From assembly GCA_947165025.1 (NCBI GenBank), contig CAMUYQ010000005.1, positions 62,001 to 126,000 on the forward strand: a stretch of DNA of 64,000 nt, read 5' to 3'. The notes beneath the pieces are model-generated. The model saw only the letters and a program-made list of their open reading frames with translations. It was not told where the DNA came from and did not search any database. Shown piece after piece: positions 45,214 through 62,414 of this stretch; the first letter of the stretch is position 1, and each line of letters begins with the position of its first letter. This DNA is from an uncultured Lachnospiraceae bacterium. Lineage in GTDB: Bacteria; Bacillota; Clostridia; Lachnospirales; Lachnospiraceae. Made by a program: the position numbers and the translations under genes.

Positions 45214-47325
45214 ATGGAGGATAAACAGCCAAGACTGAAAAAACCGATCATAAGTCGTATATTGGTGCTTATGATTGCAGGCATTCTTATCGCCGGAGCT
45301 TTTTCGGGCTGCGGAAGCTTTGCAACAAATGACCCCAACTTTGCAAAAGGGGATCCATGGATCGATTCCGATTTGCTGGGTAGCGTGTCGGAAAGTGATG
45401 AGATAAGGCTACAGGATGATTTTGCGGCAGCGGCAAACAAGGATTGGATTTTGACCGAAGGGGCAGTCCTTCAGGGCAGGAATTTTGATCATATTGCTGA
45501 TGTCATAAATGATAATAAGCTTGTACTTCTTGAAGATGATTCGCTGACCGGAAAGGAAGCGGAGGAACTGAAGAAATTTGCGGATCTGGAAAAGGACTGG
45601 GATTACAGAGCATCTACAGGGGTGGAACCGTTGCGTCCGTATATTGATTCCATAGAAGAAATTTCGAGCATTGATGAGTATTACGGCTGGATAACGGATA
45701 TAGAGAAGAATCCTCTCGGGATCGCTCCCGTTGGGGTTGTAACGGCTCCAACCAGATTGAGAGCGTTTCCAGATGAAATGATGGTTCAATATACACCGGC
45801 GGATCTCTCTCTCGGTAGTCAGAGCGCATATTACAGCCTTCTCGGACCTTCGCTTGAAATAAAGGAGATGACGGACCGAAAGGTTTCCTATATCCTGGGC
45901 AGACTCGGCTATGCTGAAAAAGATATCGACAGGATATTGAAAGAAAACTATGCTGTCGAGAAGGAGTTTGCGGCTATCATAGAACCCGATGATAATGATG
46001 AGGATGCCGAACTTAAGTATACGGACAGTTATGACGACATCATTGCAGCAGCGGGCACATATCCCCTTGATGCTTATATGAAAACGCGCGGATTTACGAA
46101 TATTGAGCATATGGTAGGATACAAAAATTATCTGAAGAAGGTGTCCGGGATATGCACGGATAAGAATCTTGCCGGGCTTAAATCCATGCTGACGGTAGAA
46201 TTGATATTGAAACTGGGATCTTACCTTGACCGGGATACATATGATACGTTTGATAAATTATCCAAAACCGGAACCAAAAAGGAAGTGCCCGATAATAAGA
46301 GCGATGCCGACAAAGAAAGGGATCTTCTGTGCGAAAACATAGCGACGAGCGGTCTTGTGGCGGCTATGGATAAGCTCTATCTTGAGAAGTTTGTTGATCC
46401 GGAATCGGCCGAGGAGCTTACCAACCTGACAAAGGATATCATAGAGGTATACAGGAACGATATTTTTCCCAATGAGGACTGGATGTCGGAAGAGGGAAGG
46501 GCTCTTTGTATCGAGAAACTTGATGCTATAACTCTGAATGTTATCTATCCCGATCTTTCACAGATCGACTACAGCAGCCTCAATATAGTTCCTAAAGAAG
46601 AGGGCGGTACTTATCTTGATGCTTATCTTGAAAGCATGCGGTACTTAAGCAGGATGAAAGGTCAGAGGGCAGGAAAGAAATATGACGCGTCAGAATGGTT
46701 TCCTTACGAAACGCAGCTTAGTACCACCATCACCAATTCGGTATATGTACCGATGGCTAACAGCATAAACATTTATGCCGGCATCTTGTCAGATCCCGCT
46801 TATCACAAAGGGATAAGTAAAGAGGAACTGATGTCTGGAATCGGTGTTGTAATCGGGCATGAAATAACGCACGGGTTCGATAATAACGGTGTTAAGTTCG
46901 ATAAGGACGGGATCAAGAACAAATGGATGTCTGAGGAAGACCAGAAGGCGTTTTCCGAAAAAGCAGGAAAAGTCTCGACATTCTATACACTGCTTCAGCC
47001 GTATAAAGGCTCGGGATTTTATGTAGGTTCAAACGTTGTAGGGGAGGCCGTTGCCGATATGGGCGGCCTGAAGGCGGTGCTTACACTGGCTTCTAAAGAT
47101 CCGGACTTTGACTATGATAAGTTCTTCCGTCATTATGCACTCCTGTGGGCATCACAGATATCCCCGGAACAGGAACAGTATTACTTCAAGAATGATGAAC
47201 ATCCGCTGAACGTTTATCGTATAAATGTTGGCGTACAGCAGTTTGATAAGTTTTATGAGACATATAACGTACAGCCCGGGGACGGGATGTATTTGGAAGA
47301 AAAAAAGAGGATAGCAGTCTGGTAA
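45214..47325 (+). CDS. M13 family (neprilysin-like) metallopeptidase lipoprotein
   Basis: 703 residues. A membrane segment (about 13-30) ends with AGAFSGC, a lipobox-like site. The catalytic zinc site is GHEITHGFD (His549, Glu550, His553) and the third ligand is in GEAVADMGGL (Glu611). M13 enzymes cut short peptides from the outside of the cell. The C terminus ends VW in place of the usual C-x-x-W, a common change outside animals. RBS AGGAGG stands 13 bases before the ATG. First of the 45132 operon with an ABC transporter and followed by a peptide cluster, so it could trim or degrade exported peptides. Confidence 0.9.
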   Translation: MEDKQPRLKKPIISRILVLMIAGILIAGAFSGCGSFATNDPNFAKGDPWIDSDLLGSVSESDEIRLQDDFAAAANKDWILTEGAVLQGRNFDHIADVINDNKLVLLEDDSLTGKEAEELKKFADLEKDWDYRASTGVEPLRPYIDSIEEISSIDEYYGWITDIEKNPLGIAPVGVVTAPTRLRAFPDEMMVQYTPADLSLGSQSAYYSLLGPSLEIKEMTDRKVSYILGRLGYAEKDIDRILKENYAVEKEFAAIIEPDDNDEDAELKYTDSYDDIIAAAGTYPLDAYMKTRGFTNIEHMVGYKNYLKKVSGICTDKNLAGLKSMLTVELILKLGSYLDRDTYDTFDKLSKTGTKKEVPDNKSDADKERDLLCENIATSGLVAAMDKLYLEKFVDPESAEELTNLTKDIIEVYRNDIFPNEDWMSEEGRALCIEKLDAITLNVIYPDLSQIDYSSLNIVPKEEGGTYLDAYLESMRYLSRMKGQRAGKKYDASEWFPYETQLSTTITNSVYVPMANSINIYAGILSDPAYHKGISKEELMSGIGVVIGHEITHGFDNNGVKFDKDGIKNKWMSEEDQKAFSEKAGKVSTFYTLLQPYKGSGFYVGSNVVGEAVADMGGLKAVLTLASKDPDFDYDKFFRHYALLWASQISPEQEQYYFKNDEHPLNVYRINVGVQQFDKFYETYNVQPGDGMYLEEKKRIAVW

Positions 47326-47347: not shown

Positions 47348-48169
47348 ATGAGCGATACACAGGCAATGATAAAACTTGAGAATATAAAAAAGTCCTATGG
47401 GAAGATTGAGATCCTGAAGGGTGTCAACATGCAGATCAACAAAGGGGATATATATGGACTTATCGGCAAGAACGGTGCCGGTAAGACTACGATATTCAAG
47501 ATGATACTTGGCCTTTCTGAAAAGAATGACGGTACAGTATCGATTGAGGGTAGCACGAACGAAAAAGAACTTATGCAGAACAGGAGTAAGATAGGGTTCC
47601 TTGTCGGAACAAAGTTCTACAATTATCTATCGGCCAGAGAGAACCTGAAGTATTATGCGACTGTTAAGGGAATTAAGAACAGTAAGGAAGAGATAGACAG
47701 AGTTCTTGAGGTTGTCGGACTTAAGGATGAAAAGAAGCCGTTTAAAAACTTCTCTTTAGGTATGACTCAGAGACTCGGTATAGGGAATGCGATACTCGGT
47801 AACCCGGATATCCTTATACTTGACGAGCCGACAAACGGACTCGATCCACAGGGTATAGCGGATGTAAGACATATGGTCCAGCGTTTCAGAGATGAATTCG
47901 GTATGACGGTCATAGTCAGCTCGCATATTCTCGGAGAACTTGAGCACACAGCGGACAGGTTCGGTATCGTTAACGGCGGTGTTGTTGTTCGCGAGATAAC
48001 TCAGGACGACCTGAAGGAGAAGCAGGCCTCGGTCGAGATAGCAGTTGATGATCTTCCCAAAGCCAAAGAGGTGTTGACTGCCAATAACATACGTATTGTG
48101 CGCGAGGTTGAGGAGAAGTCGACACTTGAAGATTACTACTTCAGACTTGTGGGAGGTAGCAAAGAATGA
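47348..48169 (+). CDS. ABC transporter ATP-binding protein
   Basis: 273 residues. Walker A GLIGKNGAGKTTIFKM (about 39-54), signature FSLGMTQRL, Walker B ILILDEPTNGLDP, and the switch His in SSHILGELEH. The C-terminal 60 residues carry a DUF4162-like domain. It matches the CcmA/BcrA/LanF group. It lies 22 bases after the M13 gene and overlaps the first permease by 4 bases (ATGA). Confidence 0.93.
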   Translation: MSDTQAMIKLENIKKSYGKIEILKGVNMQINKGDIYGLIGKNGAGKTTIFKMILGLSEKNDGTVSIEGSTNEKELMQNRSKIGFLVGTKFYNYLSARENLKYYATVKGIKNSKEEIDRVLEVVGLKDEKKPFKNFSLGMTQRLGIGNAILGNPDILILDEPTNGLDPQGIADVRHMVQRFRDEFGMTVIVSSHILGELEHTADRFGIVNGGVVVREITQDDLKEKQASVEIAVDDLPKAKEVLTANNIRIVREVEEKSTLEDYYFRLVGGSKE

Positions 48170-48879
48170 GACAGCTTATAAAGGGAGATATCGCAAGGAT
48201 ACTCAGAAAGAAAGAGATATACATCTTTGCTTTTATTCTGTATGTCATACTCTTTTCCGTAAAGAGCAAGACAGAGGTGGAGGATCAGATAGACAGTTTT
48301 GAGAGCATGGTCGCACTTATAGGAATGCTTATGTGTCTCGTTCCTGTATATATTACGGTATATGGAGATGAGATTCGCACAGGTTCCATGCAGACCGTCA
48401 TTGGACGGGGAATGTCAAGACGTAAAGTCATCATCAGTAAACTGATCGACTGTGCGATACTGTTTACCATGATGTTCATGGTCTTCCTGCTTCTCTTCTT
48501 CGTCAAGAATGCAATTGCAGGTTTGACTCTTACACCGAAGCAGAATTTTATGGCATCAGTATATGTACTGTTAACCTGCATAAGAGCCACAGGATACTTT
48601 GCCGTAACAGGTCTGTTCCTGTTTTCCTCATGGAATGTCGCCATAGGCCTTACAGCATGCGTGATGCTCGTGTTTGCAAATGTTGCATTTGGTCTCGTTC
48701 AGACAAACATGCATATTCCCATACATGATTATTGGATAGATGGACTTGTCAGTTCCGCATATAATGATCTGCTGATCGGTGATTTTCCGTGGAAGCTGAT
48801 TGCGATGGTGGCGATATACATCGTGGGTGCCGTGATTATTACGATTAAGATCTTTGACAGGAAGGAGCTCGATCTATGA
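48166..48879 (+). CDS. ABC-2 type transporter permease (1)
   Basis: 237 residues with six membrane segments after a basic N terminus (RQLIKGDIARILRKKEIYIF). The start overlaps the ATPase stop. It is a diverged paralogue of the next gene: both open with xLI-GDI-RI-KK and end with IFDRKELDL or FNKKELDF. Two small permeases with one ATPase is the LanFEG/BcrAB pattern of self-protection or small-peptide export systems. Confidence 0.85.
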   Translation: MRQLIKGDIARILRKKEIYIFAFILYVILFSVKSKTEVEDQIDSFESMVALIGMLMCLVPVYITVYGDEIRTGSMQTVIGRGMSRRKVIISKLIDCAILFTMMFMVFLLLFFVKNAIAGLTLTPKQNFMASVYVLLTCIRATGYFAVTGLFLFSSWNVAIGLTACVMLVFANVAFGLVQTNMHIPIHDYWIDGLVSSAYNDLLIGDFPWKLIAMVAIYIVGAVIITIKIFDRKELDL

Positions 48880-49628
48880 ATAATCTTATCAGAGGAGATA
48901 TCAGACGCATTATATCCAAGAAGTCGCTGTGGGTGGCTTTTGTTGCTGCGCTTATTACAAATATTTTACTTGTCGTGTTCTACCTTTTCACCATGAATTA
49001 CAGTTCTATCAACTATATGCAGGGAAATATTGAAGGGGTGGCGGATTTAGGAGGGATGATTATCGGCATAGCGGTGTTCATTGCGGTTTATTCCGATGAT
49101 TTCAGGTCCATGATTATAATCAGTATCATCGGAAGAGGCACTTCAAGACTGAAAATCATCATCGCCAAGTTCATAAACAGCGTCATCATAACGATTATAC
49201 TGTATGCACTGTTTGCCTTGGAGGTCTGTGCCATGACAAATGTAATGGGTATTGAACTGTTACCTGATGAAAGACTGGCATTGTGTCTTGGAGTGTTCAG
49301 GGGAATATACCTTACGATCGGATACGTGACTATGGCATCTATAGTGATATATGCGACCGGAAATAACGCTTTTTCCGTATTCATGCTTGTAATGTTTTAC
49401 CTTATCATACCGAATGTACTTCCATTGGCGTCCAATTTGCCGGTTGTTAAGAACATACATATCGAAAGGTATGACTACAGCGGACTTTGCTCAAACGGCA
49501 TTTCTGACATAATACTCGGGATGAAACCCCGGGGAGTATTGATACTTATATCAGCTTTCATAATTTATGTGGGAGCATCTCTTGCAATCGTTTTCAAGGT
49601 ATTTAACAAAAAGGAATTGGATTTTTAA
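48876..49628 (+). CDS. ABC-2 type transporter permease (2)
   Basis: 250 residues, six membrane segments. NLIRGDIRRIISKKSLWVAF at the N terminus parallels the first permease. Overlaps it by 4 bases (ATGA). With the ATPase it should form a 2+2 or 1+1+2 exporter. It ends 139 bases before the precursor peptide, and a weak promoter lies between, so the transporter may be expressed with or apart from the RiPP genes. Confidence 0.85.
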   Translation: MNNLIRGDIRRIISKKSLWVAFVAALITNILLVVFYLFTMNYSSINYMQGNIEGVADLGGMIIGIAVFIAVYSDDFRSMIIISIIGRGTSRLKIIIAKFINSVIITIILYALFALEVCAMTNVMGIELLPDERLALCLGVFRGIYLTIGYVTMASIVIYATGNNAFSVFMLVMFYLIIPNVLPLASNLPVVKNIHIERYDYSGLCSNGISDIILGMKPRGVLILISAFIIYVGASLAIVFKVFNKKELDF

Positions 49629-49767: not shown

Positions 49768-50034
49768 ATGAAATCTATGGAAGAGTTATACAGAGAGATA
49801 CAGGCGAACGAAGACCTGAAAAAAGAGTTTGTCTCAGCATTCAAAGAGGGACAGATCGAAACATTTCTGAAAAATCATGAATGTGATGCAGCTGCCTCGG
49901 ATGTAATGGCATTTTTGACAGGTGTTAAAGATGAATCCATATCTGACGATGATCTTGAGAAGGTTGCCGGAGGATGTGATGTGACTCCGCATTGCACGGA
50001 GATATGCACTAAGCGAATCGAGTATTGCTGGTAA
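49768..50034 (+). CDS. Nif11-type RiPP precursor peptide
   Basis: 88 residues; AAGGAGG lies 7 bases before the ATG. The leader (residues 1-69) has the Nif11/nitrile-hydratase-type pattern: SMEELYREIQANEDLKKEFV at the start and SISDDDLEKVAGG at the end, a double-glycine site. The core is CDVTPHCTEICTKRIEYCW (residues 70-88): Cys70, 76, 80, 87; Thr73, 77, 81; no Ser. A longer frame opens upstream from 49567 inside the permease gene, but the RBS decides the start. It is followed by a radical SAM enzyme and a LanM, so it is very likely the substrate of both. Confidence 0.85.
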   Translation: MKSMEELYREIQANEDLKKEFVSAFKEGQIETFLKNHECDAAASDVMAFLTGVKDESISDDDLEKVAGGCDVTPHCTEICTKRIEYCW

Positions 50035-50066
50035 TATGATTTTTAACTGTACAGTAGTGATATTAT

Positions 50067-50100
50067 AGGGGCTGCCGCATCAGTTTGGTGCGGCGGCCCT
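50067..50100 (+). other. Stem-loop between precursor and maturase genes
   Basis: AGGGGCTGCCGCA pairs with TGCGGCGGCCCT (with one G-U and a bulge) around TCAGTTTGG. There is no T run, so it likely slows or partly terminates transcription, giving more precursor than enzyme, a common layout in lantibiotic operons. Confidence 0.6.
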
Positions 50101-50117
50101 GTATATAGGTGCTTATC

Positions 50118-51512
50118 ATGGCTGTTTATGTACTGAATGATACTGCTCTTAGGTCCTGGTGGATGCTTCAGAGAGCTGTCGTCAAAAATATCAGCGGGGA
50201 GCAGCGAAGTGTCGCATCAGTCTCTAAGGAAGAGTTTGACCTGTTATTGAAATGCGATGGACAAACAATGATCCCGGAATCAGAGCTTTCAAAGAATCTT
50301 CTTGAACGGAGACTGATCCGTGTGGCAGAAGACGGCGAGAGAAATGATCCGTATCTGGACCACCGCTCTTACGACAACAGGTGTGTCCCCAACATGGGTA
50401 TAAACATCACGGAGCGGTGCAACTTCAACTGCCTTCATTGTTATGAGGCTGTTGATAATCAGATACCACGTTCCGAAATGTCTCTTTCATCCTGCAGAGA
50501 GCTTTTAAAAGAAGCAGCAGACTGTGGAATCCAGAATATAAAGATTACCGGCGGAGAGCCTCTGATCCACAAGGACTTTATGGATATCGCAAAGAGCGTA
50601 TATGAGTACGGTATGACCATTGACCGTATCAACACCAACGCTTTTTTTGTGACGTCTGATCTGTGTGAGGATCTACGGTCTTTAGACGATCATATCTTAT
50701 TCAATGTTTCGTATGACGGGGCCGGATACCATGACTGGATGCGCGGAAAGAAAGGTGCCGAGAAGGATCTCATTGAAAAGATAAAAATGCTCGTTGACAG
50801 CGGCTTTTCTGTAAGAGCAGCCATGACACTCAACCGTGTCAATGCCGGAGCTGCTTCTGAAACCATGCACCGGATGGAAGAACTTGGCGTCCGGGAGTTT
50901 CGTATAATCAGGACTTCGGAGGTTCCGCGCTGGCGTTTGAATGCAGGCGATGCATGTCTGACAATGGAAGAGTATTACGATTCCATGCTGGAACTTTTCC
51001 GTCAGTATGCGGCCGGCCGGCCAAAGATCGCTCTGGATGTCTGGCATTTCGCAAAGGTGATTCCGGAAAATAAAAGTTATTATCTGGCACCGGTGATGTG
51101 TGCGGCAGATGATTTTCGGCCGGACCTGGTCATGTGCGGGAATGCGCGCGAGAATATCACGATCACACCGGACGGAGATGTATTTCCCTGCACACCGAGT
51201 CCGGGTCTATACAAATCATGCGGCATGGAATTCGGAAACGTGTTCAGGACAGGTCTGAAAAAAATACTGCAGGACAGCGACTACCTGGCATTTGTTTGTA
51301 AAGGCGTCCATGCAATATCCGATAACGATAAGAAATGTGCATCCTGCCGTTATTTCAGGCAATGTCTCGGAGGATGCAGGTTGTTCGCGCTGGGCATGAA
51401 CGGTGATGTATTATCGCATGATCCCACAAAGTGCCTGTTTTTCGAGAACAGATATTATGAAAGAATAAAGGACGCTTTACCGGGATACCGGTGTATGAAC
51501 AACGTGGATTAA
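50118..51512 (+). CDS. Radical SAM/SPASM peptide maturase
   Basis: 464 residues from ATG 50118 (AGGTG 6 bases upstream; GTG 50109 is an alternative). The N-terminal 90 residues (VYVLNDTALRSWWMLQRAVV) could be a PqqD/RRE-like leader-binding winged helix. The radical SAM cluster is C101-x3-C105-x2-C108 (ERCNFNCLHCYEA), with GGEPLI. C-terminal SPASM Cys: VMCGNARENITITPDGDVFP, CTPSP, CASCRYFRQCLGGC. SPASM enzymes make thioether, C-C or ether links in peptides. It lies 84 bases after the precursor and overlaps the LanM region by 0-22 bases depending on start. Confidence 0.85.
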   Translation: MAVYVLNDTALRSWWMLQRAVVKNISGEQRSVASVSKEEFDLLLKCDGQTMIPESELSKNLLERRLIRVAEDGERNDPYLDHRSYDNRCVPNMGINITERCNFNCLHCYEAVDNQIPRSEMSLSSCRELLKEAADCGIQNIKITGGEPLIHKDFMDIAKSVYEYGMTIDRINTNAFFVTSDLCEDLRSLDDHILFNVSYDGAGYHDWMRGKKGAEKDLIEKIKMLVDSGFSVRAAMTLNRVNAGAASETMHRMEELGVREFRIIRTSEVPRWRLNAGDACLTMEEYYDSMLELFRQYAAGRPKIALDVWHFAKVIPENKSYYLAPVMCAADDFRPDLVMCGNARENITITPDGDVFPCTPSPGLYKSCGMEFGNVFRTGLKKILQDSDYLAFVCKGVHAISDNDKKCASCRYFRQCLGGCRLFALGMNGDVLSHDPTKCLFFENRYYERIKDALPGYRCMNNVD

Positions 51513-51514
51513 AG

Positions 51515-54253
51515 ATGGAAAGACCCAAAGATTATATACAGTATTATGAGCCGCGGTTAAAGGAACTGGCAGATTCTCTTGCAAAGAAAACGGGAGGATA
51601 TCTGCTTTCCGAAAGCGCAAAGGAAAAAGTGATACAAGCCGGGGAAATGAGAGTCAGAAGATGCACTGCGGATTATTTTAATGATCTGAGCGCCCGGATC
51701 ATAAAGGACGAAAATCCTCTTGCGCAGTTTGATCTTTCCCTGCTGACATCCGAAGACAGAGAAAAAGCCGCTTCTGTGATCCTGAAGGGGCTTGAGACAG
51801 GAGAGCTTGTCCTTCCCGAACGGCTGCAAAAGACAGTGGATGTGGTCTTTTCCAACTTTGAGAATTATTTCATCTATATGCTGAAGCTTATGAGCGATCA
51901 CCGGGAGGCGGTCTGCGCACTTCTGTTTGAAGGAAAACCTTACACAAAGATCACGGATATTACTTTTTCGGGAGACATACATAACCACGGAAAATGCACT
52001 ACGATCATAAAGACCGACGCCGGCAGATTTGTCTTTAAACCCCATAGCTGCAGGATAGATGAAAAGGCGTATGAATTCATCGGAAAATATTTTGGCGATG
52101 TTATCGTAATGCCGAAGGTATATGCGGTGGATGAGGAATTCGGAATATGCGAATTCCTTGAAAAAAGGATCGCAAATGGTGAAAAAGGAGCGAGGGAGTA
52201 TTATTATTCCCTCGGTGGAACAGCTGCGGTCATTAAGATGCTCGGAAGCATCGACATGCATATGGAAAATCTCTTCGCGCACGGAACGAAGCTTGCTCTT
52301 GTTGATATCGAAACGCTTTTATATCCGTATCAGGAGGGTTTGGGACGTGGGAAAAACGTCGGATATTATGATCCGGAAGATGAGAAGGCCTTATCAAATT
52401 CCATGCTCAGATCAGCATTTCTGAACATGTACTATGTGGATAAGAATTTTGAAAAGGAATTCAGCATTCTTTTAAGTACCGATGAAGACGGAAGCGCTCC
52501 GGAAACGGACGGACAAAAACGGACGGTCCTTGATTTTCCGGAAGAATTTATCAGAGGATTCTCTGCGATATACGACCGGTGTCTGGAGAGAAAAGAAGAA
52601 TTAAAGCGCGATATACCGGAATACTTTTCGAAACATATTCTTCGTGCGGTCGTCTGGGCCACAAGGTCTTACGGTGAAGTATTAAAAAGGCTGAACAGCA
52701 GTTATTCCTACAGGTCCGAAGAGTATTATCAGTCACAGCTTGACAAGCTTCCGGAAGTTCTCGGATCGGGAAAGGCCGTAAAGAACGACAATGTCACTTT
52801 ATCGGAGATCAGGCATCTGAGTGAAGGAGAGATCCCGTATTTTTATACATATGCCGACAGCAGGGACATTTATGCTAACGGTTCAATGGTTGCCGCCGAA
52901 TATTATACTTTGTCGGCGATCGAGAGAGTGTCCGGTATTCTGGACTCCATGGGAGAAGAGGAAAAACAGTTTGAGATCCGGCTGATGCGTCTGTCTCTTT
53001 CATACACAAGGGTCAAAAGGGAAAAGGAATCTCCCACACGCTCTCTTCGCAAAACGCAGTCGATCACAAAAGAAAAAGCCCTCTCTGTTGCAGAGGAGAT
53101 CCTTGAACGGATTTATGACGACTCTCTGGAGCTGAAGTCCGGAGAGAGGACCTGGTTCTGCTTTGATCCAGGAACGGAAAACTGCAGTCTGATGAACGTC
53201 GGTCTGTATTCGGGAGTTGCAGGCATGGCGGTCTTCTTTGCGGCAATGACAAAGGCGTCTGTTACGGATGCCATAAAAAGAAAAGCGGAAAAATCCCTTG
53301 ATTCTGCAATGCGAATGATTAAAAGGTTCGCAGATGGTATACAACTGACCGGAACCAAGGAAGACAGGCAGATAATATCCCTTGGGGAAGGCAACGGACT
53401 GGGAGGGATACTGAAAGCAATTGTCCTTGTTAACAGATATACGGACGGCGCATATGAAGACCTTCTGAAGAAGACAAAAGAACTTACCTGCAGTCTGGAT
53501 CCCGCTGCCTTTGAAGATACGGATAAATCCGGCGGCATTTCCGGACTTATCGTCACGTTATGCCGGTACACGGAACTGTATTCTGATGAAAACATACAAA
53601 CAATGATACAGAAGCTATCGGAAAGGCTTCGCGCACTAAAGACTCTGAAATATAAGGATATGCTCCTGTGGAAGACCATTAAACCCCATCCGATCTCAGG
53701 AGCGGTCCACGGAATGACGGGTATCGCGGAAAGTCTTATGATGGCGGATATGCGGCTTGGCAATACGGAATTTACAAAAGATGCAGAAGATGCGCTTGAG
53801 TTTGAGGACTCATGTTTTGATGCAGAATTGGGATGCTGGACGGACAGGCGCACCCCCGGTACAAGAAAGCCGGCAACAGGTAACTGCTACGGTCCGCAGG
53901 GAATGGGTATTATATGCACCCATTTGAAGAATGAGGGCATTGCGAACCGCCTGACGGAACATATCCGTAAGAATGCAGGGATTGCGATCCCGGGTTCAGA
54001 GCTTCACAGACTTGACCATCTTTGCTGCGGAAATATGTCGACCGTTGATTATTATCTGGAGACAGGTGATACGGACCGTGCCGGGGCTATCCTGGAGCAG
54101 ATCACAGAAGATGCGGATCAAAACGGGGAATTCCGGCTCGGATTTGCCCAGTGCCGGTCCAATAATAATGTCACTCTCTTTTACGGACTTGCAGGCATTG
54201 GGTATGAACTTTTAAGATATACGGACAGCGAAAAATATACGACTGTATTATAA
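51515..54253 (+). CDS. lanM: Class II lanthipeptide synthetase LanM, three-Cys (CCG) type
   Basis: 912 residues from ATG 51515; GTG 51491 is an alternative that overlaps the radical SAM gene. Residues about 110-440 are the kinase-like dehydratase domain (DUF4135): TITDITFSGDIHNHGK-like stretch, FVFKPHSCRIDEKAYEF and MHMENLFAHGTKLALVDIETLL. Residues about 520-912 are LanC-like: HGMTGIAESLM, Cys791 (GNCYGPQGMGI), Cys837-Cys838 (HLCCGNMSTVDYYLE). Thus the zinc ligands are three Cys, as in ProcM-type enzymes, which usually also act on Nif11-type leaders. It dehydrates Ser/Thr and adds Cys thiols. fdhD follows 13 bases later. Confidence 0.93.
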   Translation: MERPKDYIQYYEPRLKELADSLAKKTGGYLLSESAKEKVIQAGEMRVRRCTADYFNDLSARIIKDENPLAQFDLSLLTSEDREKAASVILKGLETGELVLPERLQKTVDVVFSNFENYFIYMLKLMSDHREAVCALLFEGKPYTKITDITFSGDIHNHGKCTTIIKTDAGRFVFKPHSCRIDEKAYEFIGKYFGDVIVMPKVYAVDEEFGICEFLEKRIANGEKGAREYYYSLGGTAAVIKMLGSIDMHMENLFAHGTKLALVDIETLLYPYQEGLGRGKNVGYYDPEDEKALSNSMLRSAFLNMYYVDKNFEKEFSILLSTDEDGSAPETDGQKRTVLDFPEEFIRGFSAIYDRCLERKEELKRDIPEYFSKHILRAVVWATRSYGEVLKRLNSSYSYRSEEYYQSQLDKLPEVLGSGKAVKNDNVTLSEIRHLSEGEIPYFYTYADSRDIYANGSMVAAEYYTLSAIERVSGILDSMGEEEKQFEIRLMRLSLSYTRVKREKESPTRSLRKTQSITKEKALSVAEEILERIYDDSLELKSGERTWFCFDPGTENCSLMNVGLYSGVAGMAVFFAAMTKASVTDAIKRKAEKSLDSAMRMIKRFADGIQLTGTKEDRQIISLGEGNGLGGILKAIVLVNRYTDGAYEDLLKKTKELTCSLDPAAFEDTDKSGGISGLIVTLCRYTELYSDENIQTMIQKLSERLRALKTLKYKDMLLWKTIKPHPISGAVHGMTGIAESLMMADMRLGNTEFTKDAEDALEFEDSCFDAELGCWTDRRTPGTRKPATGNCYGPQGMGIICTHLKNEGIANRLTEHIRKNAGIAIPGSELHRLDHLCCGNMSTVDYYLETGDTDRAGAILEQITEDADQNGEFRLGFAQCRSNNNVTLFYGLAGIGYELLRYTDSEKYTTVL

Positions 54254-54266
54254 TGGACCGGGGGAT

Positions 54267-54980
54267 ATGGATATTACAAAGAATATTACTACATCAGTTC
54301 TGTCTCCTGACGGACAGACAAAGACAAAAGAAATTACGGTCATAAGTGAACACACTCTTAATGTGGTCATAAATGAGCAACCCGTATACAGGATAGTATG
54401 CACGAAGGATCATCTCAGGGAACTTGTGGTCGGAAGGCTGGTTACGGACGGTGTTATCAAGATGAAAGATGACATCTATAACATTTTCTTCTGCAAGTAT
54501 GAGAATGAAGCCGGTGTATTTCTGAATTCGGATATTTCATGGGAAGAAACGCAGCAAAATATACTTAAAAAGCTTCCGGACCATGACTGGAAAAGGGAAT
54601 GGGTATTTAAGCTTGCAGAGGAATTTGGTAACGGAGCACCTATCCATGATAATACCGGGGCCAGTCATATCTGTATTTTGGCAAGACACGGAGAGACTCT
54701 CTTTATAAGTGAAGATATCGGCAGACATAATGCCGTTGACAAGGCGGTGGGATATGCCGTTCTTAACGATATCCCGCTTTCGGAATGCATGATTTTTACT
54801 TCAGGACGTGTTCCGGCGGACATGGTGGAGAAAATCATTGCCGCCGGGATCCCGGTTCTTGTATCAAAGTCGGTCCCAACTGCGGAATCAGTTAAACTGG
54901 CTGAAGAATACAATCTCAATCTGATATGCAGAGCCTGGCCGGATCAGTGCGAGGTGTTCACCGAATATAAAGATGAATAA
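54267..54980 (+). CDS. FdhD-like protein lacking the sulfur-transfer Cys pair
   Basis: 237 residues. The C-terminal half is typical FdhD: DNTGASHICILARHGETLFI, SEDIGRHNAVDKAVGYA, TSGRVPADMVEKIIAAGIPV and VSKSVPTAESVKLAEEYNL. FdhD moves sulfur from a desulfurase to the molybdenum cofactor of formate dehydrogenase, using a CxxC in the mid part. Here the mid part (about residues 80-130) has no Cys pair, so classic sulfur transfer is unlikely. The gene is 13 bases after lanM and has GGGGGA before its ATG, so it is in the RiPP operon by position. No formate dehydrogenase gene is seen. Confidence 0.75.
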   Translation: MDITKNITTSVLSPDGQTKTKEITVISEHTLNVVINEQPVYRIVCTKDHLRELVVGRLVTDGVIKMKDDIYNIFFCKYENEAGVFLNSDISWEETQQNILKKLPDHDWKREWVFKLAEEFGNGAPIHDNTGASHICILARHGETLFISEDIGRHNAVDKAVGYAVLNDIPLSECMIFTSGRVPADMVEKIIAAGIPVLVSKSVPTAESVKLAEEYNLNLICRAWPDQCEVFTEYKDE

Positions 54981-57948: not shown

Positions 57949-57966
57949 GAATTTTGCCGAAAAAAC

Positions 57967-57995
57967 TTGAATGGACGGGAAAAATAGCCGATAAT
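57967..57995 (+). promoter_or_regulatory. SigD- and/or SigA-type promoter for the C1A surface protein
   Basis: GCCGATAA at 57987-57994 is an exact sigma-28 -10, with TGAA 15 bases upstream (57968-57971; consensus TAAA). The same bases can be read as a SigA pair: TTGAAT (57967-57972), 17 bases, GATAAT (57990-57995). 49 bases before the ATG at 58044. Confidence 0.6.
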
Positions 57996-58043
57996 ACTAT
58001 TTGTATAAGTATGTCTATTTTTGCAAAGACAGAGGTTAGGGGT

Positions 58044-61000
58044 ATGAAGAAAAGAAAGTTTCAACTGATAACAACGGCAGTAATAGCGGCAGTTGCGGCC
58101 ATCGTGCTGACTCCTGCGGCTGTGTTCGGTGAGCCTTCAAAGCCGGATGATAATAATATTGAGGAGGAAATGGCAACGGGTTACATGCCGGACCCGTATG
58201 CTGAAGATCCGGACAGTATCACCGTAGTCGGAAGCGGGAAGAAATCAGGATATCAGAGTCTCAGGAGCAGCTCGGTTCCCCCAAAATATCCGAGTGATCT
58301 GTCAACTCTTGACAGTACCATGCCTCCTCTTCGTAATCAGAATCCGTACGGATCATGCTGGGCACATTCGGCCATGGCGCTGGCAGAGATCAACCTTATG
58401 AAAAAAGGTGAGACATCTCCTGACCTGTCTGAACATCATCTTGCGTATTTCACATATAACAATCAGGAAGATCCTCTTGGTGGAACCCATGGCGATAAAA
58501 ACAAAAATAACACCTCAAAGGACTATCTGGATGTCGGGGGAAATCTTGATTTTGCAACGACCACTCTTTCAGGCTGGGAAGGTGCGGCAGCTGAATCAAC
58601 GGTTCCTTATCCGACAACTACGCCTGCACCGGGTGTTGATGACAGTCTGGCATATACTGATGCCGCACATCTTCAGAATGCATATTTTGCACTGATCAAA
58701 GGAGAAGCTGAAGATATCGCTGCAGCAAAAAGACTTGTCATGGACTATGGAGCGCTCAGTGTTACGTATTATGCTCCATCGGGGATTTCCGCTGAGACAA
58801 CATCGGAGGTATATGATCCGGTAACAAACGCGTTTTATGATCCCGATCCTCATAACAACCAGACGAACCACGTTGTAACTATAGTCGGATGGGATGATAA
58901 CTTTTCAAAGGATAAGTTCGCTCAAAAACCTCAAAATGATGGAGCCTGGCTTATCAGGAACAGCTGGAAGAGCGGGGGCAAATATACTGATACGGACAGT
59001 CAGAGCTACAGAGGATATTTCTGGATGTCATACGAAAACAAAAGTCTTTCTGAAAGGGCTTTTGCTTATGATTTTGATCTGACCGGTGATTATGACCATA
59101 ACTATCAGTATGACGGTGCCCTGGCGACCAGGTACAGGATATTTACCGGTGGAGCGCTGGTTGCAAACGTGTTTATGTCTAAAGGAAGCGAAGAATTAAA
59201 GGCGGTCTCTTTTGAAACGCCTACAACCAACCTGAACTATACGATCAGGATATTTAAGAATCTTCCTGAAACAGGATTGGATCTGTCGGATAAAGAGCCG
59301 TATGATGCGGCTACAACTTCAGGTACAACAACATATGCGGGTTATTTTACCATCCCGTTAAGCAAAGCGGTGCCACTCGGTGAGGATGAGAGATTTGCGG
59401 TAGTGATCTCTTTTTCAAAGCCGGGTGAGGAGATCCGCGTTGAACAGGAAAGAGAAGAGACGCAGTCAACGATGTTTTTCAACTGTACTACAGCCGCAAC
59501 AGAGGGACAGAGTTATTGCTATAATGGCGTTAAGTGGATTGATATCGGAAAAGATGAAAACAGGAATCTCAGGATCAAAGCTTTCACGGACAATGCGGAT
59601 ACTCCCGCGACAGATAAACTTGATGTAACGATCGCTCAGAAGGATCCTCTTACTTATAACGGAGCCAACCAGAGGGCGGATCTTGATATAACTGCCAAGG
59701 TAGGGACAGAGACTGTTCCCGTATCGGATGTTACCATTACATATGCTGCTTCTGTTGCCGGAACATACTCATCGACTGTTCCCGCCTTTAAGGATGCGGG
59801 AAGCTATCGTGTATATTTCAAGGCCCAAAAGGATGATAAAGAAGACAGCGGTGATTTTACTGTTACGATCGGTAAGAAGCCTCTTTCTGTAAGCTGGAGT
59901 TCAGCCGGCCCCTGGAAGTACGATGGGAACGAGCATGGGGAAACGCCCACGGCCGAAGGAGTTGCGACGGGTGATACGGTAACGTTCGTGATAGAGAACG
60001 AGAAGCAGAAACATGCCGGAACCTATACTGCAAGGATCACAAATATTGATACAGAAAACAGGAAAAACTATTCACTTCCGACGAGTGATCTTACAAAGAG
60101 TTATACGATAACCGAAAGAAATGTGACGATCAGGACCGATGATATTACGTCGCCGTATACCGGAAGTCCTGTCACGAAAGACTCCTATTCCTTCTCCGAT
60201 GACGGGTTTGTCGGAACGGAAGGTGTGGACGTTACGGTAACAGGTTCCAGGACAGCACCGGGAGACAGCGAGAACTCGTTTACATATACATTTAAGAGCA
60301 ATACTTCGGCCGGGGATTATATCATTACAACGATACCCGGAACGATACACGTAAACTGGTGGGATCCGAGCGAGAAAGATGCTCATATCATTACTATAAG
60401 ATCGATAAGTAAAACCGTTGATTATAACGGAGACGAACAGACAGTAAGCGGTCTTGAGGACGGATGGCAGAAGCAAACGATAGATGGTGTGCAATATGTC
60501 GTTTCGGGCCTGAGGGCTGAAGGAAGCGGTACAAATGTCGGAACGCACACCAACCGCATTTTGGGTACAGCGACTATTGTTGATGATGACGGAAATCCTG
60601 TCACCGATCATTTTAAGATCGTATATGATGAGGGTAAGCTTACTATCAGACCGAGAGACCTGTCCGATTCAACGATAACGCTTACAAAGGATCTGGTGTA
60701 TACAGGATCAGAGCAGACTCAGGAGTTCAAAGTCACACTGGACAACAGGGTACTGACGAGGGACACCGATTATGAGGTTACAGGCGACAAGGCAAGGGAT
60801 GCGGGTGATCATACCCTTACGATCACGGGAAAGACGAACTATAAAGGGTCCGCGTCCAAGACTTATACGATAAAGGATCTTGAGATAACCGGAGCAAGCG
60901 TGACCCAGGAAAACACTCTGACCTATAACGGATCGTCACAGACTCCTACGTTAAAAATGAGATCGGATCAGGATAATGTCACGTTCACTTTTGCAAAATC

Positions 61001-62414
61001 ATCCGATTCCACATATACTTCGGAGCTTCCAAGCTTTACTGATGCCGGAGAGTACAAGGTATATTTCAAGGCCGAGAAGTCGGGATACAAATCGGCAACA
61101 GGATCGTTTACCGTGACCATCGAAAAATACGAGCTCGGAGCGAACTGGGGAACAACAAGCTTTACGTATGACGGAAGCGCCCATGTTGCAAGAGCTGTTC
61201 CAACAGGAGTAAAGGGCGGAGACGGTATAAGGTTCACGATGTCGGGAGAGCATACCGAGCCCGGCACATATACCGCTACCATAACGGGTATTGAAGGAAG
61301 CGGAGCGGGCAATTACAAACTGCCTTCATCCAATACAACAAAGACGTTTACGATCACAAAGGTCTCATCGAGTTCGTCGAGCAGTTCCTCAAGCAGTTCG
61401 AAGAGTTCGACAACGTCAAACAGTTCGAAGAGTTCGACGACATCAAACAGTTCAAAGAGTTCGTCAACGTCAAACAATTCGAAGAATGCAACAACGTCAA
61501 ACAATTCAAAGAAAACGACAACGTCAGGCGGTTCAAATACAACGAACAGCAAGAACACCTCGAAAACGACGGCCGGTGCCTCAACCGGATCCACCGGAAA
61601 CAGCGGCAGTGGAAGCAAGACCGACAATAAGACAGAAAACAAAACCGATAACAAGACCGAGAACAAAAAGGAAAGCACCGAAAAGGTTCCCGATAACGTA
61701 AAGAGCACAAAGCTTGCCGACAACGAGGCTGCTCTTAAAGCCGTTCTCGGTGAGGAAAAGCTTAAGAAGCTTATCGATGAGAAGAAGACACCCGCAGTCC
61801 GTCTGGATATCAAGCCTCTTGATAAGAGCAAGGTTTCGGACAGCGAAAAGAAGCTCGTTGAGGATAAGATCGAGGAATATAAGTCTTCGATACCGGGACT
61901 TGCGGCCGGAGAATACATGGATCTGACTCTTGAGATCAAAGAGGATGCCGACTGGAAACCGGTAAGTGAGACGAAGGAACCGATAGGAATAGTATTCCCC
62001 GTTCCGGAAAAGCTGAAGAAGCTTGCGTTAAAGTTCTTCGTTCTTCATATTCACGGATCGGAGGCAACGCTTCTTGAAGACAGAGATGATGATCCTGATA
62101 CGGTATCGGTTGATACTGACGGATTCTCAACGTTTGTCCTTATGTATCAGGAAAAAGAGGCAACTGCTGATAACAGTAAGTCCGAAGATAGCGAGGAGAT
62201 CAAAGTAACATCTGCTCAGGAGACTGAGAACAGGACCGACACACCTGAGATAACCGAGAAGGCTCCGGATACCGGATCCCAGAGCATGGCAGAGCCGGAG
62301 GGTAATCCGATGGATAATGATCTGTGGAGGATCATAGTATTTGTTGTTGTCGTTGTGGTCATAGTGGGACTGATAATCCTGTGCGTATACGGTCCGAAAC
62401 TTATGAAAAAGTAG
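58044..62414 (+). CDS. Surface-anchored C1A (papain-like) peptidase with Ig-like repeats
   Basis: 1456 residues from ATG 58044 (TAGGGGT upstream); earlier in-frame Met codons precede the promoter and are rejected. Signal peptide (about 1-28). Peptidase residues 95-330: oxyanion Gln and Cys105 in NQNPYGSCWAHSAM, His276 in TNHVVTIVGWDD, Asn306 in IRNSWKSG. A lectin-like domain (about 330-530) follows, then five or so MBG/Ig-like units (VTYAASVAGTY, KYDGNEHGETPT, YNGSSQTPTL). An S/T/N-rich stalk with 9-residue repeats, a second stalk, a C-terminal domain, and a membrane helix with the short tail YGPKLMKK end the protein. It anchors by this helix; no LPxTG. A secreted protease or adhesin. Confidence 0.82.
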   Translation: MKKRKFQLITTAVIAAVAAIVLTPAAVFGEPSKPDDNNIEEEMATGYMPDPYAEDPDSITVVGSGKKSGYQSLRSSSVPPKYPSDLSTLDSTMPPLRNQNPYGSCWAHSAMALAEINLMKKGETSPDLSEHHLAYFTYNNQEDPLGGTHGDKNKNNTSKDYLDVGGNLDFATTTLSGWEGAAAESTVPYPTTTPAPGVDDSLAYTDAAHLQNAYFALIKGEAEDIAAAKRLVMDYGALSVTYYAPSGISAETTSEVYDPVTNAFYDPDPHNNQTNHVVTIVGWDDNFSKDKFAQKPQNDGAWLIRNSWKSGGKYTDTDSQSYRGYFWMSYENKSLSERAFAYDFDLTGDYDHNYQYDGALATRYRIFTGGALVANVFMSKGSEELKAVSFETPTTNLNYTIRIFKNLPETGLDLSDKEPYDAATTSGTTTYAGYFTIPLSKAVPLGEDERFAVVISFSKPGEEIRVEQEREETQSTMFFNCTTAATEGQSYCYNGVKWIDIGKDENRNLRIKAFTDNADTPATDKLDVTIAQKDPLTYNGANQRADLDITAKVGTETVPVSDVTITYAASVAGTYSSTVPAFKDAGSYRVYFKAQKDDKEDSGDFTVTIGKKPLSVSWSSAGPWKYDGNEHGETPTAEGVATGDTVTFVIENEKQKHAGTYTARITNIDTENRKNYSLPTSDLTKSYTITERNVTIRTDDITSPYTGSPVTKDSYSFSDDGFVGTEGVDVTVTGSRTAPGDSENSFTYTFKSNTSAGDYIITTIPGTIHVNWWDPSEKDAHIITIRSISKTVDYNGDEQTVSGLEDGWQKQTIDGVQYVVSGLRAEGSGTNVGTHTNRILGTATIVDDDGNPVTDHFKIVYDEGKLTIRPRDLSDSTITLTKDLVYTGSEQTQEFKVTLDNRVLTRDTDYEVTGDKARDAGDHTLTITGKTNYKGSASKTYTIKDLEITGASVTQENTLTYNGSSQTPTLKMRSDQDNVTFTFAKSSDSTYTSELPSFTDAGEYKVYFKAEKSGYKSATGSFTVTIEKYELGANWGTTSFTYDGSAHVARAVPTGVKGGDGIRFTMSGEHTEPGTYTATITGIEGSGAGNYKLPSSNTTKTFTITKVSSSSSSSSSSSSKSSTTSNSSKSSTTSNSSKSSSTSNNSKNATTSNNSKKTTTSGGSNTTNSKNTSKTTAGASTGSTGNSGSGSKTDNKTENKTDNKTENKKESTEKVPDNVKSTKLADNEAALKAVLGEEKLKKLIDEKKTPAVRLDIKPLDKSKVSDSEKKLVEDKIEEYKSSIPGLAAGEYMDLTLEIKEDADWKPVSETKEPIGIVFPVPEKLKKLALKFFVLHIHGSEATLLEDRDDDPDTVSVDTDGFSTFVLMYQEKEATADNSKSEDSEEIKVTSAQETENRTDTPEITEKAPDTGSQSMAEPEGNPMDNDLWRIIVFVVVVVVIVGLIILCVYGPKLMKK
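61406..61513 (+). repeat. Four 27-bp tandem repeats in the stalk region
   Basis: Units 61406-61432, 61433-61459, 61460-61486 and 61487-61513, each 27 bases encoding a 9-residue S/T/N/K unit (SSTTSNSSK). The fourth is diverged. Copy number may vary and change stalk length. Confidence 0.85.

What the first reader, a model, noticed from the sequence alone, without database searches (positions are those of the whole stretch)
49768..54253. RiPP cluster with one precursor shared by a radical SAM/SPASM enzyme and a LanM
A Nif11-type precursor is followed by a radical SAM/SPASM maturase and a class II lanthipeptide synthetase. LanM installs thioether rings from Ser/Thr and Cys. Radical SAM/SPASM enzymes make other cross-links (for example C-C, ether, alpha-thioether). 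The two in one operon with a single visible substrate would make a doubly modified peptide, which I do not know as an established class. Family identities are established knowledge; joint action on one peptide is inference.
Basis: partly seen in the sequence, partly recalled or inferred. Interest (0 to 1): 0.88.

Follow-up and report, generated by a model that had tools for sequence, protein, structure and literature searches.

The report
Peptide operon: radical-SAM plus lanthipeptide enzyme
A bacterium related to gut and rumen species carries one small precursor-peptide gene followed by two different kinds of peptide-modifying enzymes, so the same peptide may receive two kinds of chemical modification; comparable pairings are known, but with another type of radical enzyme.

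Summary
At 49768-54253 lie an 88-aa double-glycine precursor with a weak Nif11-type leader (core CDVTPHCTEICTKRIEYCW), a radical SAM enzyme with a complete 7-Cys SPASM domain, and a LanM with the expected catalytic residues and the ProcM-like CCG zinc motif. A strong hairpin separates precursor and rSAM; LanM starts 2 nt after the rSAM stop. One LanM and one linked precursor were found in the 99%-complete genome. The trio recurs in a Murimonas intestini record with reversed enzyme order, and the enzyme pair on a rumen Lachnospiraceae contig that ends before any precursor. Of 26 fetched relatives of the rSAM, 24 lack LanM. Of 40 double-glycine peptides beside this rSAM family, 28 have a Cys in the first four core residues (12.9 expected); both known LanM-linked cores start with Cys. 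Best reading: one peptide, LanM making methyllanthionine rings, rSAM acting at or near Cys1. Joint action is inferred. Against it: Murimonas has a second Nif11 peptide, and the window's genome has an unlinked candidate. Precedents (landornamide, carnazolamide) pair a LanM-type enzyme with an rSAM epimerase; a SPASM maturase with a CCG LanM is a new variant of a known kind.

The parts
49768..50034 (+). RiPP precursor, 88 aa: Nif11-type double-glycine leader (49768-49974) and 19-residue core CDVTPHCTEICTKRIEYCW (49975-50031)
   Evidence: ORF and codons; TIGR03798 19.3 bits, below cut-off; leader 31/69 identical to the Murimonas LanM-linked precursor
50068..50100 (+). 15-bp RNA hairpin between precursor and rSAM; attenuator or mRNA stabiliser is an inference
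   Evidence: 50035-50117 folds at -34.3 kcal/mol, z -4.1, 0 of 200 shuffles as stable; the simple terminator scan lists no terminator-like site there
50118..51512 (+). radical SAM/SPASM peptide maturase, 464 aa: N-terminal RRE-like domain (about residues 1-70), CX3CX2C, 7-Cys SPASM
   Evidence: Pfam; invariant Cys columns in 25 sequences; AF2 pLDDT 92.8; Foldseek best hits SkfB, SuiB, 5why
51515..54253 (+). LanM class II lanthipeptide synthetase, 912 aa, CCG (ProcM-like) zinc motif
   Evidence: Pfam, TIGR03897; residues K175, D247, H249, N252, D264, R377, T383, C791, C837, C838
47348..49628 (+). ABC ATPase (47348-48169) and two permease-like genes (48166-48879, 48876-49628); LanFEG-like self-protection is an inference
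   Evidence: TIGR03740 lantibiotic protection ABC 214.9 bits, below its 309.75-bit cut-off; first permease hits ABC2_membrane_5 below cut-off, the second has no Pfam hit; 139 nt upstream of the precursor; ATPase has no tblastn hit in the Murimonas locus L020 at E 1e-3
45214..47325 (+). M13 (PepO-like) metallopeptidase in the same direction; a role in the cluster is only possible
   Evidence: Peptidase_M13 and M13_N; no tblastn hit at E 1e-4 in the other fetched rSAM loci

Best explanation
A RiPP operon in which one Nif11-type precursor is modified by two unrelated maturases. The LanM (CCG type, which is linked to broad substrate tolerance) dehydrates Thr4, Thr8 and Thr12 and closes methyllanthionine rings on Cys; the rSAM/SPASM enzyme, holding the leader through its RRE-like domain, makes a radical modification at or near the Cys next to the double-glycine site, most simply a thioether or other cross-link. 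The core has four Cys and three Thr, so one Cys is left over after three rings. A C39 peptidase transporter then removes the leader after GG; none is in the operon, but close homologues of the transporter pair that stands beside the Murimonas trio lie elsewhere in the same genome. Shown: gene content, intact motifs, gene spacing, recurrence, the GG-proximal Cys enrichment. Inferred: joint action, sites, chemistry, export in trans.
For: Own genome: one LanM match and, with the precursor as query, one match. rSAM stop and LanM start 2 nt apart. Same trio in the Murimonas intestini record, order precursor-LanM-rSAM; enzyme pair at 68% (rSAM) and 54% (LanM) identity on a rumen Lachnospiraceae contig cut upstream. 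LanMs of the three loci form one clade, 100/100, all CCG, while the 10 other Clostridia LanMs in the tree show CHG. No LanM over the thresholds lacks the rSAM neighbour, but those calls found only the own genome and Murimonas. All radical-SAM and SPASM Cys are kept in 25 of 25 aligned rSAMs. Cys in the first 4 core residues in 28 of 40 peptides (12.9 expected by shuffling within cores, 0 of 10,000 shuffles as high), 15 of 20 at one per locus (7.3 expected, p 2e-4). C39 transporter pair in own genome 68% and 60% identical to the Murimonas pair; PCATs cut Nif11 leaders at the double-Gly motif (PMC10885120, passage). A LanM that depends on a prior rSAM step is on record: landornamide, from preliminary heterologous expression (PMC10028609, passages).
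Against: No biochemical evidence. Murimonas has a second Nif11 peptide (L039:1261-1488, core without Cys, Ser or Thr) whose leader resembles those of rSAM-only loci, so its rSAM could serve that peptide. On the rSAM tree Murimonas groups with a locus without LanM, 99/97, apart from the window/rumen pair; at least two changes are forced. 24 of 26 fetched rSAM loci have no LanM hit, and 7 of those 24 have no such peptide either. The own genome holds further leader-profile hits on contigs 13, 1 and 2 (E 3e-6, 8e-4, 0.05). The GG-proximal Cys may serve another step: 12 of 40 peptides lack it, and the own genome's NHLP precursor, in an epimerase cluster, also has Cys after GG. The Murimonas record is titled UNVERIFIED_CONTAM, so its host is uncertain. 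No precursor is seen with the closest relative, L037.
Confidence: 0.6

Rival explanations
1. Neighbours with separate substrates. The LanM modifies the linked precursor alone; the rSAM acts in trans on another double-glycine peptide, such as the contig-13 peptide with a zinc-ribbon-like Cys-rich tail.
For: 17 of 24 LanM-less rSAM loci have Nif11-type peptides, several with CxxC-rich tails; a similar peptide exists unlinked in the own genome (E 3.1e-6); Murimonas has a second Nif11 peptide; the rSAM tree does not unite the trio loci.
Against: Precursor, rSAM and LanM adjacent, the enzymes 2 nt apart; enzyme pair kept at 68%/54% identity on another contig and the trio in a third with changed order; the linked core carries the GG-proximal Cys while the contig-13 peptide does not; the rSAM family profile finds no member within the 16.5 kb fetched around that peptide.
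Confidence: 0.23
2. The rSAM is a peptide epimerase or other non-cross-linking enzyme, and the product is a D-residue-containing lanthipeptide, as in landornamide A.
For: The two natural precedents whose passages I read pair LanM-type enzymes with rSAM epimerases; another Clostridia locus seen here has a YydG-like rSAM beside a LanM (L097); by sequence YydG structures are among the 11 PDB hits (E 1.2e-6).
Against: Neither the PoyD nor the YydG model is among the 25 listed of 80 matching families, whereas two own-genome proteins score 415 and 378 bits to the PoyD model; in the PDB by sequence SkfB, PqqE and 5wgg score better than YydG, and in the fold search EpeE first appears at rank 33.
Confidence: 0.13
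3. The cluster is decayed or silent and the rSAM no longer acts.
For: Leader scores low; no transporter with a C39 domain in the operon; rare: 1 of 36 other genomes of the genus has an rSAM match at E 1e-30, at 30% identity and without LanM.
Against: Catalytic Cys, LanM residues and reading frames intact; AGGAGG before the precursor.
Confidence: 0.04

Closest known systems
Landornamide A cluster (OspA/OspM/OspD/OspR)
   Same: One precursor modified by a lanthionine synthetase and a radical SAM enzyme; OspM activity reported to depend on the prior rSAM step (PMC10028609, passages)
   Different: Proteusin precursor, not Nif11-type; rSAM is an epimerase, not a SPASM maturase; a peptide arginase acts there, while no arginase is among the trio and seven neighbouring proteins scanned here, three of which have no Pfam hit
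Prochlorosins / ProcM-like LanM
   Same: Nif11-family leader, double glycine, variable core, CCG zinc motif (hallmark stated in PMC10783134, passage)
   Different: One linked precursor here instead of many; an rSAM gene is part of the operon; precursor scores below the Nif11 cut-off
Radical SAM/SPASM peptide maturases: nif11-class maturase 3 (TIGR04103), WgkB, SkfB, CteB (the name CteB for 5wgg/5why is recalled)
   Same: CX3CX2C and 7-Cys SPASM here; double-glycine precursors beside relatives
   Different: Far below the cut-offs (TIGR04103 75 of 725 bits, WgkB 109 of 650); chemistry unknown; LanM partner
Dehydrazoles / carnazolamide (cca cluster)
   Same: LanM-like dehydratase and rSAM epimerase in one pathway (PMC10676384, passages)
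   Different: NHLP precursor, YcaO azoles, class III-type cyclase domain and no lanthionine rings in the isolated product
Engineered hybrid RiPPs made with chimeric leaders (Burkhart 2017)
   Same: By its title, hybrid RiPP products
   Different: Man-made; I saw only the title in a reference list

Membership tests
Class II lanthipeptide cluster | LanM with DUF4135 dehydratase and LanC cyclase domains and their catalytic residues | tested here: met
   (roles of the residues recalled)
Class II lanthipeptide cluster | Adjacent leader-core precursor with Ser/Thr and Cys in the core | tested here: met
   3 Thr, 4 Cys, no Ser
Class II lanthipeptide cluster | (Methyl)lanthionine in the product | not testable with these tools
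   needs MS
ProcM-like (CCG) LanM | Cys-Cys-Gly in place of Cys-His-Gly at the zinc site | tested here: met
   C791, C837, C838; hallmark stated in PMC10783134
Nif11-leader RiPP precursor (TIGR03798) | Score over the curated cut-off | tested here: not met
   19.3 against 32.3 bits, profile positions 3-68 of 68; Nif11-like, not filed as a formal member
Radical SAM/SPASM RiPP maturase | CX3CX2C and 7-Cys SPASM | tested here: met
Radical SAM/SPASM RiPP maturase | RRE-like leader-binding domain | tested here: inconclusive
   AF2 N-terminus shows strands 2-6, 9-14, 17-23 and helices 37-45, 56-63; no RRE model was scanned
Sactipeptide or ranthipeptide | Radical thioether from Cys to an alpha, beta or gamma carbon | not testable with these tools
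   needs MS/MS and NMR
Landornamide-type LanM plus rSAM epimerase proteusin | NHLP precursor and PoyD-family epimerase | tested here: not met
   precursor has one NCBIfam hit, TIGR03798; the PoyD model is not among the 25 families listed for the rSAM. The own genome's separate proteusin cluster does match both models

The most novel reading that the evidence does not exclude
A natural hybrid RiPP family in which two thioether chemistries share one Nif11-leader peptide: a SPASM rSAM claims the Cys beside the double-glycine site by a radical cross-link, and a CCG LanM claims the remaining Cys through Thr-derived methyllanthionine rings. The Nif11-type leader acts as a common docking port, so LanM and rSAM modules can be added or dropped in evolution.
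Probability: 0.34. Interest if true: 0.75.

Novelty: new variant of a known kind. Interest (0 to 1): 0.52.

Why it matters
If both enzymes act on one peptide, nature has combined a radical maturase with lanthionine rings on a single short core. That would give a ready-made tool for making doubly constrained peptides and a clean test of how two maturases share a leader and divide four Cys between them. The GG-proximal Cys enrichment of this rSAM family is also a direct, testable handle on an uncharacterised group of maturases.

Tried and rejected
Tried: rSAM pair alignment against the species-wide genome contigs gave four loci, one of them (L040, Williamsia, 28% over residues 87-161) discarded as unrelated. 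LanM search of viral contigs: no relative. LanM against plasmids: 170 records, all below 60% identity, not followed. Promoter scan: 8 promoter-like sites against 7.8 expected, nothing usable.

Considered and rejected: that the genes are an assembly artefact (frames intact, relatives show the same pair); that the rSAM is one of the NCBIfam equivalogs (all 25 listed are far below cut-off); that the trio is simply one old inherited unit (the rSAM tree needs two changes, though the LanM tree needs one).

Rows left out: rSAM alignment A5 (25 rows) leaves out L028 and L066 (fragments of 209 and 351 aa), L039 (same place as L020) and the second rSAMs of L067, L068, L070. The LanM tree (13 rows) leaves out L097 (in-frame stop, not mended), L099-L101 and the shorter LanM of L093. 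The first Cys count used 30 precursors picked by eye from the regex list (25 of 30); 10 dropped ones, 3 of them with the Cys, were then added (28 of 40). The 40 include the two LanM-linked precursors and near-duplicates from one locus, hence the count at one per locus. Several fetched loci end at contig ends (L022, L025, L028, L032, L037, L066, L069, L072), so absence there is weaker. The regex read only the rSAM strand within 6 kb; one search repeated the search on both strands with the leader profile (trained on most of these peptides) and found matches in 18 of 26 loci.

Changed on checking: confidence in the best explanation lowered from 0.62 to 0.60 after counting the seven loci without any such peptide and the UNVERIFIED_CONTAM title of the Murimonas record.
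Full report
WHAT IS THERE. The finding's coordinates are exact. Precursor 49768-50034, rSAM 50118-51512 and LanM 51515-54253 are intact frames on the + strand. The precursor is 88 aa with a 69-residue leader ending in VAGG and the core CDVTPHCTEICTKRIEYCW. It hits the Nif11 leader model almost end to end but under its cut-off (19.3 against 32.3 bits). The rSAM carries Radical_SAM and SPASM domains; CX3CX2C, CX12GX4C, CX2CX5CX3C and the last Cys are invariant in 25 aligned sequences, the window's included. The LanM has DUF4135 and LANC_like domains. Residues that line up with conserved LicM2/CylM positions are present: K175, D247, H249, N252, D264, R377, T383, C791, C837, C838 (their catalytic roles are recalled). 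C837-C838-G is the CCG motif that PMC10783134 calls characteristic of ProcM-like enzymes (passage).

OPERON LOGIC. An AGGAGG sequence precedes the precursor. A 15-bp hairpin follows it (-34.3 kcal/mol, z -4.1); such a hairpin could let the peptide be made in excess (inference). LanM starts 2 nt after the rSAM stop. Upstream, in the same direction, are an ABC ATPase nearest to lantibiotic-protection ATPases (TIGR03740, below cut-off), two permease-like genes and an M13 peptidase. FdhD follows 13 nt downstream and is probably unrelated (judgement).

ONE SUBSTRATE? The genome (99.17% complete) has one LanM match. A search with the precursor finds only itself; the Nif11 family model gives the precursor and two weaker matches, none over the cut-off, and the same search also rings below the cut-off in 9 of 14 control genomes. 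A profile of 30 leaders, the window's included, finds the precursor (1e-17) and three more places: contig 13 (3.1e-6), contig 1 near 149 kb (7.8e-4), contig 2 (0.05). The contig-13 frame is a 141-aa protein with a double-glycine leader and a Cys-rich, zinc-ribbon-like tail (weak DZR hit); the rSAM family profile finds nothing in the 16.5 kb around it. So the operon has one visible substrate, the genome more than one conceivable substrate.

RELATIVES. rSAM-first searches covered 37 genomes of the genus, 397 of the family, 392 of the order, the own genome counted in each, and a species-wide contig scan. I fetched 26 loci with a homologous rSAM besides the window (L020-L033, L037, L038, L063-L072; L039 is the same place as L020). 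A LanM hit is present in 2 of 26, L020 and L037. L020/L039 is a Murimonas intestini record, titled UNVERIFIED_CONTAM; its order is transporter, transporter, precursor, LanM, rSAM. L037 is a rumen Lachnospiraceae contig: transporter (cut), transporter, rSAM, LanM, and no precursor in view. Of the 24 loci without LanM, 17 have Nif11-type peptides and 7 (L021-L023, L025-L028) have none in the DNA fetched. LanM-first searches gave the own genome and Murimonas among 397 family genomes (E <= 1e-60) and the own genome alone among 398 phylum genomes (E <= 1e-50), so they confirm rarity and give one independent pairing only. A general LanM search found LanM in 11 of 371 class genomes. Among the 13 regions fetched for the ten other genomes, only L097 had hits to the rSAM profile; the one next to LanM is YydG-like, 205 bits, below the 300-bit cut-off. 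CX3CX2C frames of other kinds appear in L091, L097 and L101 and were not pursued.

TREES. The three LanMs form a clade (100/100) apart from 10 Clostridia LanMs that show CHG (long branches meet in that tree, and letter make-up differs). The three rSAMs do not: window and L037 pair (100/100), Murimonas pairs with L038, which has no LanM in the DNA held (99/97); at least two changes are forced. Either LanM was lost in rSAM-only lines, or LanM joined this rSAM family more than once, or an rSAM was replaced.

WHAT THE rSAM MAY DO. AF2 gives a confident model (pLDDT 92.8, pTM 0.90). Best fold matches are SkfB, SuiB, 5why/5wgg (sactipeptide thioether enzyme), PqqE and anSME; the epimerase EpeE first appears at rank 33. 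By sequence the best PDB hits are SkfB, PqqE and 5wgg, with YydG lower at 1.2e-6. Across 40 double-glycine peptides beside this rSAM family (the two LanM-linked ones included), 28 have a Cys within four residues of GG (12.9 expected from within-core shuffles, 0 of 10,000 as high); one per locus 15 of 20 (7.3 expected, p 2e-4). Some cores have that single Cys only (L065, L066:1012, L064:13218). Both known LanM-linked cores begin with Cys. The window core has Thr4, Thr8, Thr12 and Cys1, Cys7, Cys11, Cys18: three methyllanthionine rings leave one Cys. I therefore propose that the rSAM acts at or near Cys1. This is inference: 12 of 40 peptides lack such a Cys, and an NHLP precursor beside PoyD-family epimerases in the same genome also has Cys after GG.

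LEADER REMOVAL. No C39 domain lies in the operon; two C39 genes lie elsewhere in the genome. The pair on contig 3 is 68% and 60% identical to the Murimonas pair, so export in trans is plausible (inferred).

LITERATURE. Ten searches of open PMC papers, seen as listings plus passages of ten papers, showed no LanM plus SPASM rSAM on one Nif11 precursor; most subscription papers are not held and no whole text was read. Precedents: landornamide (PMC10028609, passages) and carnazolamide (PMC10676384, passages). Walker et al. 2020 note that radical SAM genes occur in lanthipeptide clusters (PMC7268733, passages). A Bacteroidales survey tabulates rSAM plus LanC-like areas but no rSAM plus LanM column (PMC10352776, passages). 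The Hungate1000 survey of rumen isolates lists 30 putative class II clusters; the words radical, rSAM and Nif11 do not occur in its main text (PMC13289728).

VERDICT. Real, intact, rare, with one independent recurrence of the trio and one of the enzyme pair. A hybrid RiPP operon is the best reading (0.60), with the chemistry open. New variant of a known kind rather than a new category.

Noticed in passing
G000 contig 1, about 404-416 kb (L044:4574-15380): A separate proteusin cluster in the same genome: NHLP precursor (53.9 bits, over cut-off) with a core starting GG-Cys, two PoyD-family rSAM epimerases (415 and 378 bits), a probable membrane-fusion protein and a C39 transporter pair.
   Followed up: partly
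L024, L038, L063, L064, L066, L072: Nif11-type leaders in front of CxxC-rich, zinc-ribbon-like tails beside this rSAM family; unusual cores for RiPPs.
   Followed up: partly
L105:7937-8359 (G000 contig 13): Orphan 141-aa double-glycine peptide with a zinc-ribbon-like tail (weak DZR hit below cut-off) and no rSAM of this family found nearby.
   Followed up: partly
L097:6576-10941: Another Clostridia locus with a 60-aa peptide, a YydG-like rSAM (below cut-off) and a LanM interrupted into two frames; a LanM plus rSAM pairing of a different kind.
   Followed up: partly
L039:1261-1488: Second Nif11 peptide in the Murimonas record with a core lacking Cys, Ser and Thr (LAPKGIFNIRKDNNNKYL), upstream of the transporter pair.
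   Followed up: partly
window 57954-62414: 1486-aa protein with papain-like C1 peptidase and lectin-like domains.
   Followed up: no
window 54267-54980: FdhD-like protein 13 nt after LanM; may be co-transcribed.
   Followed up: no
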